Assembly: GCF_002954405.1 (NCBI RefSeq)
Contig: NZ_MQWC01000004.1
Location: forward strand, 3,886,613 to 3,950,612
DNA length: 64,000 nucleotides
Reading direction: 5' to 3'
Source of the DNA: Salinibacter sp. 10B
GTDB lineage: Bacteria; Bacteroidota; Rhodothermia; Rhodothermales; Salinibacteraceae
The notes under the pieces are model-generated. The model searched no databases. It saw only the letters and a list, made by a program, of their open reading frames with translations, and was not told the DNA's origin. This document shows positions 1-14,461 of the stretch, in pieces. A program made the translations under genes and the position numbers. The number at the start of each line of letters is the position of its first letter. Positions within the stretch are counted from its first letter, which is position 1.

Positions 1-384
1 TTGGAGGGAAGCAATACACACGATCCGTACTGGAACGCCGCGATGAAGGAGATGCGAGAGACCGGTTACATGCATAACTACATGCGCATGTACTGGGGCA
101 AGAAAATTCTGGAATGGTCTCCTGATCCCCAAACGGCCTTTGAATGGACGCTGGCGCTCAATAACCGATATTTTCTGGATGGACGGGATCCAAACTCTTA
201 CGCAAATGTGGCCTGGGTCTTCGGGCTACACGACCGCGGCTGGAAGGAGCGTCCAGTGTACGGGAAGGTGCGGTACATGAGTAAGGGGGGGCTTGAGCGG
301 AAGGCCGACCCCGACGCTTACGTGGAAAAAGTAGATCGCCTGTCGGCTGAGGCACAGGCTCCCTCCGAACGGAATCGTGGATGA
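1..384 (+). CDS. phr: Class II CPD deoxyribodipyrimidine photolyase, C-terminal part (partial)
   Basis: The frame is open at the window start, so only the last 127 or so residues are present and the true start lies upstream. The visible part matches the FAD-binding C-terminal domain of class II photolyases. HDPYWNAAMKEM, then YMRMYWGKKILEW, LNNRYFLDGRDPNSYANVAW and GLHDRGWKERPVYGKVRYM are family hallmarks in the family's order. The enzyme repairs cyclobutane pyrimidine dimers in DNA with blue light and FADH-. The leading TTG is simply the first codon in the window, not a start. The stop overlaps the next start (ATGA), which suggests translational coupling to the small membrane protein downstream. 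Confidence 0.93.
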   Translation: MEGSNTHDPYWNAAMKEMRETGYMHNYMRMYWGKKILEWSPDPQTAFEWTLALNNRYFLDGRDPNSYANVAWVFGLHDRGWKERPVYGKVRYMSKGGLERKADPDAYVEKVDRLSAEAQAPSERNRG

Positions 385-2277: not shown

Positions 2278-2659
2278 GGGGACAACCGGGCTGCGACGAA
2301 AACACGAAGGAGAGACGTACCAATCCGAAGCAAAACCGCAACTGCCTGTGGGGCGCACAAGGACGACGCGCCACGTTTCTGAAACAGGAGAAGGCGTGTT
2401 TGCGGGGAATGGTACATGCCAACATCAAATGGATCGCTCGTATTGACGAGTTGGGCTCCGAGTTTCCGACTGCGAATAATTTTCGACTTGGCGGTGCGCA
2501 CTGAACGGGGAAGCCTTTCAAGAAATCCATACCCGTCAATCCGACAGAGGGACATCAAGGGGGATCCACTTGTGGTTGATTCTTGACGGGAGGAGGGTGA
2601 ATTCGTACAATACCAAAATGACACCTCCTATTTCCCTTCTCATCGATTCTGTCTCTCTT
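2278..2659. other. Intergenic region upstream of the PSP-like cluster
   Basis: About 380 bases between divergent genes. It should hold the promoters for the minus-strand gene at 1921-2277 and the plus-strand cluster starting at 2660. The frames here have no coding character, and no operator or hairpin stands out. Confidence 0.45.
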
Positions 2660-3091
2660 ATGGAAACGACTCAAGCTGAGCGCGATGCTGAGGTTTTTCA
2701 GACCATTTGTAACTGGGTGGGCGACATCGGGCTGGTCATCTCAAGAAAAAATACTGACGAGTATCTTCTCGTCGTCGAGGATGAGGAGCGTGGCATCTCC
2801 AACATGGTAATCGACTGTGAAGACCCGATTGTCGAGATTCAACAGTCCATCATGGCAGTGCCGGGCGAGGCCGACACTGCTCATTTGTTCGAACGGCTGC
2901 TTCAAATGAACGGCACGCTCGTGCACGGCGCGTTCATGTTGAGTGACGATGGGACACAGATTCGTTTTCGCGACACCCTGCGGCTCGGCACGCTCGATTT
3001 GGAGGAGCTGCGTGGGACGATCAATGCCCTCCACTTCGCTCTGGAGGAGTATGGCGACGAGCTCATCGATCTGCGCCGTAGCCTCGACTAG
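2660..3091 (+). CDS. YbjN/CesT-like fold protein of the PSP-like cluster
   Basis: 143 residues from the ATG at 2660 (METTQAERDAEVFQTICNWV); the longer upstream frame lacks coding character. The layout is that of YbjN/type III-chaperone-like proteins: an N-terminal helix, strands around LVISRKNTDEYLLVVEDEE, a helix with HLFERLLQMNGTLVHGAF, strands around GTQIRFRDTLRLGTLDLEEL and a final helix. Proteins of this type bind partner proteins rather than catalyse reactions. Its place directly ahead of pspA suggests a chaperone or adaptor role in envelope stress. That role is inferred from context, and YjfI (DUF2170) is an alternative family. Confidence 0.72.
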   Translation: METTQAERDAEVFQTICNWVGDIGLVISRKNTDEYLLVVEDEERGISNMVIDCEDPIVEIQQSIMAVPGEADTAHLFERLLQMNGTLVHGAFMLSDDGTQIRFRDTLRLGTLDLEELRGTINALHFALEEYGDELIDLRRSLD

Positions 3092-3242
3092 TGTGCGACG
3101 GGGGAGCGTTGAGCATCCGGCGCTTGAGGCGTCGGATGACCGACAGCTCTGATTTTCGACTCAGCGTTGCCTCCTGTGATTTCCATTCTCGGAGCAGAAT
3201 TGTCCGAATTCCTCTCGGTTCTTCACCAACCCCTGATCAGTC

Positions 3243-3950
3243 ATGAGTCTATTCAAGCGCGCTATCAACATGTTCAAGTCCGAAGCCAACGCCGCCCTCG
3301 ATGAGGCGGAGGACCCCGAGAAGATGCTTAAACAGGGCATCCGCGACCTCAAGAGTGACCTGCGCGATGCCAAGGAGGCGCTCGCCGAGACGAAGTCGGT
3401 GGTCAACAAGCTGGAGCGAGATTTGAACGAGGCCCGCAAGCGAGCCGACAAGTATCAGAGCGACGCCAAGAAGCTATTACAGAGAGGCAAGGAGGGAGAT
3501 ATGGATGAGCAGAAGGCCGACCAGCTGGCCCGGAAGGCCCTCAACGAAAAGAAGCAGGCCGAAAGCAAGGTCGAACAGCTCCAGTCCAGCTACGAGTCGC
3601 AGAAGAAACAGGCCGACCAGCTACAGCAGCAGGTGAGCAAACTGCAACAGAAGATCAGCCAGTATGAGAGTGAGCTAACCACCCTACGTGCCCGCTCAAA
3701 GGCCGCGACCGCTACGCGCAAGGTGAATGAGGAGCTCGCCCAGAGCGATAGTGACGGGACCATCGCCATGATGGAGCGAATGAAGGAGAAGGTGGAGAAG
3801 GAGGAAGACATGGCGGAGGCCTATGGGGAAATGGCGGAAGAAAACAAGAGCGTGGACCAGGAAATCGAAGATGCACTCGGGGAAGCGAGCAGTTCCGACA
3901 CCGACGACGAACTCGCAGCGTTGAAAGCGGAGCTCGATAGCGAGAAGTAA
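3243..3950 (+). CDS. pspA: PspA/IM30 family membrane-stress protein
   Basis: 235 residues, the usual PspA/Vipp1 length, and almost entirely coiled coil. The N-terminus MSLFKRAINMFKSEANAALDEAEDP is the family signature: an amphipathic helix followed by the DEAEDPEKML segment. Long heptads continue through about residue 160 (EQLQSSYESQKKQADQLQQQ). The acidic tail ends DDELAALKAELDSEK. PspA-type proteins assemble on the inner face of damaged membranes and keep them sealed. It sits about 150 bases after the YbjN-like gene and about 95 bases before the PspC-domain gene, consistent with one operon. Confidence 0.95.
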   Translation: MSLFKRAINMFKSEANAALDEAEDPEKMLKQGIRDLKSDLRDAKEALAETKSVVNKLERDLNEARKRADKYQSDAKKLLQRGKEGDMDEQKADQLARKALNEKKQAESKVEQLQSSYESQKKQADQLQQQVSKLQQKISQYESELTTLRARSKAATATRKVNEELAQSDSDGTIAMMERMKEKVEKEEDMAEAYGEMAEENKSVDQEIEDALGEASSSDTDDELAALKAELDSEK

Positions 3951-4046
3951 CGAGCGGCCTCAGCGTTTGGGGAGGCTCCCCTGCCGTCACTCTGAGCTTC
4001 CTTCGAGAACGCTCGTCGCGTCTACTCCACAGCTTCACCTCGACTG

Positions 4047-4751
4047 ATGGGTACTTCAGGCTCGCTCGACCAGCTGCGCGAGGGCTTCATGCTCGACTAT
4101 GATATGCGCACCTGGGAGGTGAGGGGACACAAAACATACGAGCAGGAGGGATGGCCGGCCGATGAATGGAGGCTTACATGCGGAGGAGACGTGCTTTTTC
4201 TGGAGCATGAGTACGTGCAGGGCGATCTCTTTCGGCTGCTGCGTCCGGCTGACATTACCGACGTCACGGTTGAGGGGGAGCCCTTTCTGGCGGCGGTGCG
4301 TGAAGAGGATCCTCCCAATACCGTTACCTACCAGGGCGAGGAGTACGTTCTGGCCGAGGAGGACGCACGGATTCAGGATTCGTCGAGTCGGGTCGTTCGT
4401 TCCCGTAGCGATGCCTGGCTGATGGGGGTATGTGGAGGAATTGCTGAGCATCTGGACATCCCGCCGACCTACGCTCGGATTGGGTTTATCGCGGCGATTC
4501 TGGTGTCGGGACTCTTTTCCGGTGGAGGATCGGGATGTCTTCTGATTCCAGGGTACTTTATCGTAGGGGCGAGCATGTCGAAAGCGCCTCCGTCGCCTCC
4601 AAGAGACGACCTTTCCCACTACTGGGTGTACCAGGGGGAGGAGGGGTTCGTGGCGTTTCAATGTCTGGGAAGCAACGACTGGCACGTGTACGCCGGACGT
4701 GAAGTAGAGCCGTACGAATTCGACAACATTCTCCCTCGCGCGTCCTCTTAA
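4047..4751 (+). CDS. DUF4178-like protein with an inserted PspC domain
   Basis: 234 residues. Residues 12-105 resemble the first half of DUF4178 (WEVRGHKTYEQEGWPADEW, then a strand pattern ending TYQGEEYVLAEEDARIQD). Residues 117-176 form a PspC domain: SRSDAWLMGVCGGIAEHLDI, then a membrane helix with a Gly-rich GLFSGGGSGC turn. Residues 187-230 resume the DUF4178-like pattern (HYWVYQGEEGFVAFQCLGS, DWHVYAGREVEPYEF). The PspC membrane unit therefore appears nested inside the soluble domain. It lies between pspA and a J-like gene, so it is a likely membrane anchor or sensor for PspA. Domain calls are by eye. Confidence 0.85.
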   Translation: MGTSGSLDQLREGFMLDYDMRTWEVRGHKTYEQEGWPADEWRLTCGGDVLFLEHEYVQGDLFRLLRPADITDVTVEGEPFLAAVREEDPPNTVTYQGEEYVLAEEDARIQDSSSRVVRSRSDAWLMGVCGGIAEHLDIPPTYARIGFIAAILVSGLFSGGGSGCLLIPGYFIVGASMSKAPPSPPRDDLSHYWVYQGEEGFVAFQCLGSNDWHVYAGREVEPYEFDNILPRASS

Positions 4752-4771
4752 ATGCACCTTCTCTGCCTGTC

Positions 4772-5137
4772 ATGTCTCTCTCCCGTCGCTTGAAGCGCAT
4801 TGTTCGGGCCCATCTCGGCGACCTCCGTGCAGATTCGAACGGGCCGGAGACGACGGACGTAGACTGGGACGATCCGCTGTCGTCGGAGCCGCCGTCCGGT
4901 TCGGGGGCGTCGTCCGCCGAGGTGCCGCCCGACGTTGCGAAGGCGTACCGGGCGCTGGAAGTGCCGGTGGGGAGTGACCGCGAAACCGTGAAAACGGGCT
5001 ACCGGCGCGTAATGAAACAGTATCATCAAGACCGCTTCGAACAGGACGAGGAGAAGCGGGAAGTGGCAGGTGAGGTCTCCAAGCGCGTCAATGCGGCCTA
5101 TCAGCGCGTTCTCGAATACCTGGACGAGTCGTCCTGA
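4772..5137 (+). CDS. J-domain-like protein with HQD in place of HPD
   Basis: 121 residues starting 20 bases after the previous gene. Residues 1-52 are a low-complexity acidic/Ser/Pro linker. Residues 54-118 are a J-like domain: VAKAYRALEVPVGSDRETVK, then YRRVMKQYHQDRF and a final helix ERREVAGEVSKRVNAAYQRV-like segment. The loop that normally reads HPD reads H85-Q86-D87. Canonical J proteins need HPD to stimulate Hsp70 ATPase, so this one may act as a scaffold or bind DnaK differently. It is probably the last gene of the PSP-like cluster. Confidence 0.82.
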   Translation: MSLSRRLKRIVRAHLGDLRADSNGPETTDVDWDDPLSSEPPSGSGASSAEVPPDVAKAYRALEVPVGSDRETVKTGYRRVMKQYHQDRFEQDEEKREVAGEVSKRVNAAYQRVLEYLDESS

Positions 5138-5188
5138 GCGTTCTACATCGTCTCCCCATCCGTTTTTGCATATCTACATTCCTGTCCC

Positions 5189-5581
5189 ATGTCGAGTGTA
5201 TCGTCCGCCTCCGATTCGGCCTCTTTCGGTGCCCCCGAATCGTGCTACGGGCGGCACCTGATCTGCGAACTCTACGGGGCCTCTCGTCTTGCCGATGTGG
5301 AGCACGTCACACACGTGTTGGAGCAAGCGGCGGAGGTGTGTGGGGCCACCCTGCTGGAAACGCACCTCCATCCCTTTGAGGAAAATGGGGGCGTGACGGG
5401 GGTCATTCTCCTGGCCGAATCTCACATCACGATCCATACGTGGCCGGAGCACGACTATGCTGCTGTTGATATCTTCCTCTGCGGTGACTGTGCTCCTGAG
5501 GACGGGGTGCCGGTATTAAAGGAGGCCTTTGCGCCCGATACCGTACAGCAGGCTACGTTTGAGCGCGGACGCCCCTCTTGA
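5189..5581 (+). CDS. speD: S-adenosylmethionine decarboxylase proenzyme (class 1B)
   Basis: 130 residues, the normal bacterial SpeD length. The self-processing site is visible at E77-S78 in LLAESHITIHTWPEHDYAAV. S78 becomes the pyruvoyl group, and H83 and C98 (FLCGDC) are the expected catalytic residues. The enzyme makes decarboxylated SAM, the aminopropyl donor for spermidine. The first 18 residues are a Ser-rich extension ahead of the conserved YGRHLICELYG. The small gap to the next gene (24 bases) may mean co-transcription, although the functions look unrelated. Confidence 0.95.
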   Translation: MSSVSSASDSASFGAPESCYGRHLICELYGASRLADVEHVTHVLEQAAEVCGATLLETHLHPFEENGGVTGVILLAESHITIHTWPEHDYAAVDIFLCGDCAPEDGVPVLKEAFAPDTVQQATFERGRPS

Positions 5582-11854: not shown

Positions 11855-11959
11855 CTTGAAAAAAGTCGTCACCGACTCTATTTCTGTACACCGACGAAGG
11901 AAAAGAGCCCTCTCGGGCCTCCAACATTGCGTTTGCTCACAAGACACCATTCTCCAACG

Positions 11960-12208
11960 ATGCCAACGACAGACGAAAAGACCCTCGACGTACGCCCGAT
12001 TCCTCCGCGCGAAAAGCACCCGACCATCTTCCAGACGTTCGACGATCTGGCGCCCGGCGACCACTTCGTGCTTGTGAACGACCATGATCCGAAGCCGCTG
12101 TACCACCAGTTTCAGGCTGAGCGGCCCGGACAGATGAAGTGGGAGTATCTGGAACAGGGACCGAAGGAGTGGCGCGTGAAGATCTCGAAGGTCGAGGAGC
12201 AGTCGTAG
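11960..12208 (+). CDS. DUF2249 domain protein, copy 1
   Basis: 82 residues from the ATG at 11960; the frame upstream of it is Arg/His-rich and not coding-like. The DUF2249 pattern is complete: LDVRPIPPREKHPTIFQTFD, LAPGDHFVLVNDHDPKPLYH, then MKWEYLEQGPKEWRVKISK. DUF2249 proteins are small, SirA/TusA-like in fold, and often occur with denitrification and Fe-S repair genes. Three copies lie within 3.2 kb here (also 14174 and 14842). The molecular role is unknown. Confidence 0.9.
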   Translation: MPTTDEKTLDVRPIPPREKHPTIFQTFDDLAPGDHFVLVNDHDPKPLYHQFQAERPGQMKWEYLEQGPKEWRVKISKVEEQS

Positions 12209-14173: not shown

Positions 14174-14461
14174 ATGACAGATCTCCAAGACACATCCGCC
14201 CAACGACAGCTCGACGTTCGACCCATCGAGCCCAAACACCGCTTCGAGCAGATTATGGACGCCTACCACGGCCTCTCGCCCGGGGACACGCTCGAGCTCG
14301 TCGTGGACCACGATCCCAAGTGCATGTACTACACTCTTGAAGCTGAGCATGGCGCGGAGACCTTCTCCTTTGAGTATCTGGAGGAGGGGCCGAAGGTGTG
14401 GCGGGTGCACGTTGCGAAAGAGGAGGCCCTGGAGCCGGCCGCAGCGTCCGACAAGGAGTGA
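14174..14461 (+). CDS. DUF2249 domain protein, copy 2
   Basis: 95 residues with the same plan as copy 1: LDVRPIEPKHRFEQIMDAYH, LSPGDTLELVVDHDPKCMYY, FSFEYLEEGPKVWRVHVAKE, plus an Ala/Glu-rich tail. One Cys occurs in the HDPKCMYY position where copy 1 has Pro-Leu. The next gene (DUF59) starts 38 bases on, so the two are likely co-translated and co-regulated. Confidence 0.9.
   Translation: MTDLQDTSAQRQLDVRPIEPKHRFEQIMDAYHGLSPGDTLELVVDHDPKCMYYTLEAEHGAETFSFEYLEEGPKVWRVHVAKEEALEPAAASDKE

What the first reader, a model, noticed from the sequence alone, without database searches (positions are those of the whole stretch)
4047..4751. PspC domain nested inside a DUF4178-like protein
The PspC segment (residues 117-176, GVCGGIAEHL with a helix after it) interrupts a DUF4178-like pattern that starts at residue 12 and resumes at about 187. 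An inserted membrane unit in a soluble domain would tether the DUF4178 fold to the membrane beside PspA.
Basis: partly seen in the sequence, partly recalled or inferred. Interest (0 to 1): 0.6.

Follow-up and report, generated by a model that had tools for sequence, protein, structure and literature searches.

The report
Membrane PspC domain nested in DUF4178
A bacterial protein made next to the membrane-repair protein PspA has a membrane-embedded PspC stress-sensor domain spliced into a loop of an otherwise soluble domain; the same genome keeps an uninterrupted copy of that soluble domain, so the insertion is real and not a misreading, and it is a natural test of how PspC sits in the membrane.

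Summary
Confirmed. The 234-aa protein at 4047-4751(+) is a DUF4178 domain interrupted by a PspC domain. Pfam finds DUF4178 at 13-109 (profile 3-90 of 136) and PspC at 115-173; with the insert removed, the match runs to profile position 136. The decisive evidence is an intact paralogue in the same genome (L037:9657-10208, 183 aa) that aligns to residues 6-122 (59%) and 191-234 (80%), with 14 residues where this protein has 85. Two related genomes have the same uninterrupted protein. An HMM of uninterrupted relatives matches both flanks in order; 500 shuffled tails never approach the real one. AlphaFold places the site at a beta-hairpin tip of the DUF4178 fold. Among 36 DUF4178 genes in sampled Bacteroidota genomes, only this one is interrupted. 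The gene is a fast-evolving duplicate that lost the N-terminal MGFFDSLF segment; it lies in a CesT/Tir-PspA-DUF4178-DnaJ-AdoMet decarboxylase run. Most likely it is a membrane-anchored form of the operon's DUF4178 protein. Because both halves of a cytoplasmic fold flank it, PspC must enter and leave on the cytoplasmic side. Membrane anchoring, expression and PspA contact are inferred, not shown. It is a new architecture of known domains.

The parts
4047..4751 (+). DUF4178 protein with nested PspC domain, 234 aa
   Evidence: ORF; Pfam DUF4178 + PspC
4062..4361 (+). First part of the DUF4178 domain, residues 6-105
   Evidence: Pfam 13-109; 59% identity to the paralogue over 6-122
4362..4616 (+). 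Insert with linkers, residues 106-190, in place of the paralogue's 14-residue hairpin tip GPATRTVDDRTNEL
   Evidence: alignments A1/A6
4389..4565 (+). PspC domain, residues 115-173
   Evidence: Pfam PF04024 52.1 bits; TIGR02978 115-189, below its cut-off; invariant G, V, G, R, Y of order PspCs kept
4416..4451 (+). WLMGVCGGIAEH, the PspC signature helix (cryptic or amphipathic segment)
   Evidence: sequence; helix 124-135 in a low-confidence part of the model
4473..4580 (+). Two short hydrophobic stretches (143-158 and 164-178) around an uncharged SGGGSG turn, a candidate membrane hairpin
   Evidence: Kyte-Doolittle scan; sequence
4617..4748 (+). Second part of the DUF4178 domain, residues 191-234
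   Evidence: 80% identity to paralogue residues 140-183; HMM test
2570..3091 (+). CesT/Tir-like (YbjN superfamily) chaperone gene upstream; the true start may be downstream of 2570
   Evidence: Pfam PF22550 131 bits
3243..3950 (+). pspA, the only PspA match found in this genome with this query
   Evidence: Pfam PF04012 172.6 bits
4772..5137 (+). Small DnaJ-domain protein gene
   Evidence: Pfam PF00226 28.2 bits, just over cut-off; 64% identical to the G009 operon gene
5189..5581 (+). S-adenosylmethionine decarboxylase gene
   Evidence: Pfam PF02675; TIGR03330 127.6 bits, over cut-off

Best explanation
The gene is a duplicated copy of the DUF4178 gene that belongs to the PspA-CesT/Tir-polyamine operon. 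After duplication within this genus lineage, a PspC domain, most like the PspC proteins of the same genus, replaced the 14-residue tip of one beta-hairpin of the DUF4178 fold, and the N-terminal MGFFDSLF segment was lost. Shown: the insertion, its in-frame junctions, the uninterrupted paralogue and orthologues, and the gene order. Inferred: the DUF4178 halves still fold together in the cytoplasm. The PspC unit then dips into the inner membrane and returns (hairpin or re-entrant), so both of its ends are cytoplasmic. The protein is therefore a membrane-fixed form of a normally soluble or peripheral DUF4178 adaptor, holding it where PspA acts and possibly passing PspC's response to membrane stress into the DUF4178 fold.
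For: Uninterrupted paralogue at G000:C4:4119656-4120207 and orthologues in G009 and G018. The flanks belong to one family and appear in order. The insert keeps the PspC invariant residues. The best matches to the insert are PspC proteins of the same genus. Only two PspC domains exist in the genome and they are about 42% identical, so this is not an assembly chimera of the other copy. The site is a beta-hairpin tip in the uninterrupted model, pLDDT about 85-95 around it. Both models match the same EF-P domain-I barrel (1ueb) with N- and C-terminal residues together (range 22..174 uninterrupted, 4..229 here, rmsd 2.5, Z 5.5 and 6.4), as expected if the halves pack. Positive residues flank both sides of the hydrophobic region and none lie in the turn between its two stretches. 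The neighbours are CesT/Tir, PspA, DnaJ and AdoMet decarboxylase. Published PspC work describes a two-TM protein with a cryptic first TM (PMC11237479) and a C-terminal cytoplasmic domain that binds PspA (PMC5596341).
Against: No experiment shows membrane location, expression or PspA binding. The PspC part of the model is low confidence (pLDDT under 50 at 106-187) because that alignment held no PspC relatives there. The barrel matches have Z under 8, a common-arrangement level. No second genome carries the interrupted form; the nearest relative with this locus (G008) has a contig end just after pspA. The copy evolves fast: 36 unique changes against 7 in the paralogue. So decay or relaxed constraint is possible, although the reading frame is intact and a rough dN/dS against the paralogue is about 0.22, with dS near saturation.
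Confidence: 0.62

Rival explanations
1. The insert is real but the duplicate is a decaying copy: PspC disrupts DUF4178 function, and the intact paralogue does the work.
For: Long branch and excess of unique changes; lower third-position GC in the insert (0.56 against about 0.7); loss of the N-terminal MGFFDSLF segment.
Against: Intact frame over 234 codons; all 11 columns invariant in the 9-sequence alignment are kept; PspC invariants kept; rough dN/dS about 0.22; gene retained inside the pspA run with short spacers.
Confidence: 0.2
2. PspC and DUF4178 are not one packed unit: the protein is a DUF4178 N-half, a PspC membrane segment and a C-terminal tail on the other side of the membrane or pairing with another DUF4178 molecule.
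For: An early topology for E. coli PspC puts its C-terminus in the periplasm, and prediction programs disagree (PMC3068692).
Against: The C-half is 80% identical to the paralogue's C-half; an exported half-domain would be under different constraint; positive charges on both flanks favour both ends inside; models match one barrel with both ends.
Confidence: 0.1
3. Assembly or annotation artefact: two genes joined by misassembly.
For: No second genome with the interrupted form was found; contigs of G008 break in or near these genes.
Against: Both junctions are in frame at a homologous loop; the PspC sequence occurs nowhere else in the genome; the DUF4178 flanks differ from the paralogue by about a third, so they are not copied from it; the contig is 4.3 Mb.
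Confidence: 0.04

Closest known systems
DUF4178 protein of the PspA-CesT/Tir-spermine synthase operon (e.g. AAN56747.1 in PMC11237479)
   Same: Same family, same gene neighbourhood (CesT/Tir, PspA; polyamine genes), predicted intracellular beta-rich protein
   Different: The window copy has a PspC unit in a hairpin tip and lacks the N-terminal MGFFDSLF segment; no such insertion is described in the passages read
Same-genome paralogue L037:9657-10208 and orthologues L034:5932-6474, L035:101-661
   Same: 63-67% identity in the genus over shared DUF4178 columns (58% to G018), same C-terminal motif GREVEPYEFDNILP (F for Y in the paralogue)
   Different: 14-residue loop instead of the 85-residue insert; in the same genome the paralogue sits beside the spermine synthase-like gene, not pspA
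PspC (PF04024), including genus PspC proteins with N-terminal hydrophobic segments
   Same: GVCGGIAEHL signature, conserved arginine, hydrophobic stretches and a K-x-P-P-type tail
   Different: Nested inside another domain; about 7 extra residues between the two hydrophobic stretches; no N-terminal hydrophobic region like that of the genus PspC proteins
PspC fusions listed in PMC11237479 (ZnR, PspB, LiaI-LiaF-TM, histidine kinase, HAAS, Toastrack)
   Same: PspC as a membrane-proximal sensor joined to a cytoplasmic partner domain
   Different: Those in the passages read are described as fusions; no DUF4178 fusion and no insertion is mentioned there
452-aa protein with hydrophobic segments and DUF4178 at L037:6303-7661
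   Same: DUF4178 in a protein with hydrophobic segments, in the same genome
   Different: DUF4178 sits uninterrupted at the C-terminal end (274-423)

Membership tests
DUF4178 (PF13785) | Match over the curated cut-off | tested here: met
   49.7 bits against cut-off 25
DUF4178 (PF13785) | Match over the whole profile | tested here: met
   Only 3-90/136 as it stands; 3-136/136 with the insert removed; second part confirmed against paralogue and relatives
DUF4178 (PF13785) | Predicted all-beta fold with the two parts packed together | tested here: inconclusive
PspC (PF04024) | Match over the curated cut-off | tested here: met
   52.1 bits against cut-off 25, residues 115-173; 54.7 bits
PspC (PF04024) | Residues invariant among order relatives (G, V, G, R, Y) | tested here: met
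   Alignment A2
PspC (PF04024) | Membrane-embedded | not testable with these tools
   Hydrophobic peaks of 2.1 (15-residue window) and 1.7 (19-residue), below the genome's other PspC at 2.2 and 2.1
Canonical PspC protein (TIGR02978) | Score over the equivalog cut-off | tested here: not met
   36.6 bits against 104: it holds a PspC domain but is not a PspC orthologue
PspA-CesT/Tir-polyamine operon | CesT/Tir-PspA dyad with DUF4178 and polyamine genes | tested here: met
   CesT/Tir, PspA, AdoMet decarboxylase in the window; DUF350, spermine synthase-like and the intact DUF4178 are about 230 kb away in this genome but in one run in G009

The most novel reading that the evidence does not exclude
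PspC works here as an in-line membrane-stress switch: its change of state in the membrane is transmitted straight through the hairpin into the DUF4178 fold, which then binds or releases PspA or an operon partner, so one protein replaces the PspC-partner signalling seen elsewhere. The nesting would also fix PspC's topology with both ends in the cytoplasm.
Probability: 0.22. Interest if true: 0.72.

Novelty: new variant of a known kind. Interest (0 to 1): 0.52.

Why it matters
Insertion of a membrane-embedded domain into the middle of a soluble domain is an uncommon way to build a membrane protein (general knowledge), and here an uninterrupted twin survives in the same genome as a control. PspC's topology has been argued over: C-terminus out in the early E. 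coli work, possibly switching, against a cytoplasmic C-terminal domain in Yersinia. A PspC that must leave the membrane on the side it entered, or lose its host fold, gives a clean test. It also ties the uncharacterised DUF4178 family directly to a known stress sensor, which suggests where DUF4178 acts: at the membrane with PspA.

Tried and rejected
Flanks from different families: rejected by the paralogue and HMM tests. Chance C-terminal match: rejected by 500 shuffles. A missed upstream start carrying MGFFDSLF: the open frame has 17 more codons upstream but no ATG/GTG/TTG before 4047. Interrupted relatives elsewhere: none among 36 DUF4178 genes over the cut-off in Bacteroidota samples, none in plasmids, none recognised in the genome-contig and viral-contig scans; other phyla could not be sampled for DUF4178. 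A combined DUF4178 + PspC alignment for AlphaFold was misaligned by MAFFT and dropped, so the PspC part was folded without relatives. Solved-structure searches by sequence gave nothing useful for either domain. Fold search of the uninterrupted model gave only weak barrel matches (best E 0.05; Z under 6). Consensus promoter and terminator scans were at chance level. A PspC gene beside DUF4178 in relatives was looked for with an HMM in the fetched DUF4178 loci and not found.

Full report
What is there. The ORF at 4047-4751(+) encodes 234 aa. Pfam gives DUF4178 at 13-109, covering only profile positions 3-90 of 136, and PspC at 115-173; both score about twice their cut-offs. When residues 109-186 are left out, DUF4178 runs to position 136 (47.1 bits), although the last 48 residues alone give no Pfam hit. 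That alone would be suggestive only, because joining adds little to the Pfam score.

The decisive comparison. The same genome holds an uninterrupted copy 230 kb away (L037:9657-10208, 183 aa). It matches residues 6-122 at 59% and 191-234 at 80% identity. At the site, the paralogue has 14 residues (GPATRTVDDRTNEL) where this protein has 85. Orthologues in G009 (L034, record titled Bacteroidetes bacterium SW_9_63_38) and G018 (L035) are also uninterrupted. An HMM from eight uninterrupted relatives scores the whole protein at 141.3 bits in two ordered pieces (profile 21-121 and 133-179). The N-part alone scores 95.3, and the N-part plus a shuffled C-part averages 97.1 (sd 1.6, max 104.6, n 500).

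How rare. Across Bacteroidota samples (394 genomes of the phylum, 114 of the order, and further family or class draws that partly overlap), 36 DUF4178 genes pass the cut-off. All but this one cover about 130 or more of 136 positions in one stretch. DUF4178 is also found in other phyla (the control genome Corynebacterium glutamicum has it), which the tools did not let me sample, so 'unique' applies to these samples only. Only one paper in the library names DUF4178, PMC11237479, and the passages read from it do not mention a PspC combination.

Structure. AlphaFold of the uninterrupted G009 protein (four-sequence alignment) gives an all-beta domain, mean pLDDT 78.7 overall and about 85-95 in most of the core. 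The residues replaced in the window protein form the tip of the long hairpin E115-129/E132-143, a place where an insertion need not disturb the core. The window protein's model has both flanks as strands at pLDDT about 70-90 and a poorly determined insert (under 50 at 106-187) with two helices, 124-135 and 140-156. Such Z-scores do not establish a fold relationship.

The insert. It keeps the PspC residues that are invariant in the order sample, and its best matches are PspC proteins of the same genus, extending into their K-x-P-P tail. NCBIfam's PspC model reaches residue 189 but below its cut-off. Two hydrophobic stretches (143-158, 164-178) surround an uncharged SGGGSG turn, with arginines or lysine outside on both sides. 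This fits a hairpin with both ends inside, which is also what an undisturbed cytoplasmic DUF4178 demands. The literature has both views of PspC: C-terminus out or switching in E. coli (PMC3068692); two TM helices with a cryptic first one (PMC11237479); a cytoplasmic C-terminal domain that binds PspA in Yersinia (PMC5596341).

Genomic context and history. In G009 one run of genes holds spermine synthase-like, DUF4178, DnaJ, CesT/Tir, PspA and AdoMet decarboxylase. In the window's genome this is split. One locus keeps DUF350, a protein with hydrophobic segments plus DUF4178, the spermine synthase-like gene and the intact DUF4178 gene (L037). The window keeps CesT/Tir, PspA, DUF4178 with PspC, DnaJ and AdoMet decarboxylase, all on the + strand. 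The tree places this copy with the genus (87/86 support, below the star threshold) on a long branch. It has 36 unique changes against 7 in its paralogue, with G009 as third sequence. Rough dN/dS against the paralogue is 0.22, with dS near saturation. It also lacks the MGFFDSLF-like start found in most relatives. My inference is that a peripheral N-terminal membrane contact was exchanged for an integral one; that segment's role is not known.

Interpretation. Shown: a true domain insertion at a hairpin tip, in frame, in a retained duplicate next to pspA. Inferred: cytoplasmic DUF4178 anchored by a PspC hairpin, acting with PspA. Speculative: PspC passing membrane stress into DUF4178. The main rival is a decaying duplicate. 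The wider operon has been proposed to link polyamine or aminopropyl chemistry to PspA-based membrane dynamics (PMC11237479).

Noticed in passing
L037:5386-10208 and window 2570-5581: The PspA-polyamine operon that is one run in G009 is split into two loci about 230 kb apart in this genome, with a DUF4178 gene kept in both.
   Followed up: yes
L124:1-75, L041:3563-3711, L042:11070-11254 (G008): In same-genus genome G008, contigs end just after pspA and inside the intact-type DUF4178 gene, so whether it carries the PspC insert cannot be seen.
   Followed up: partly
L037:6303-7661: A 452-aa protein with N-terminal hydrophobic segments and a C-terminal DUF4178 domain sits in the same genome, a different way to put DUF4178 at a membrane.
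   Followed up: partly
L036:5950-6498, L046, L047 and others: Most stand-alone DUF4178 proteins aligned here begin with MGFFDSLF/MGLFDFF-like residues, a possible short membrane-binding helix; the window copy has lost it.
   Followed up: no
L034 model, residues 30-85 and 109-166: The predicted DUF4178 fold looks like two similar strand sets in tandem, suggesting an internal duplication.
   Followed up: no
window 11927-12208 and 14174-14461: Two small proteins 45% identical to each other lie about 2 kb apart.
   Followed up: no
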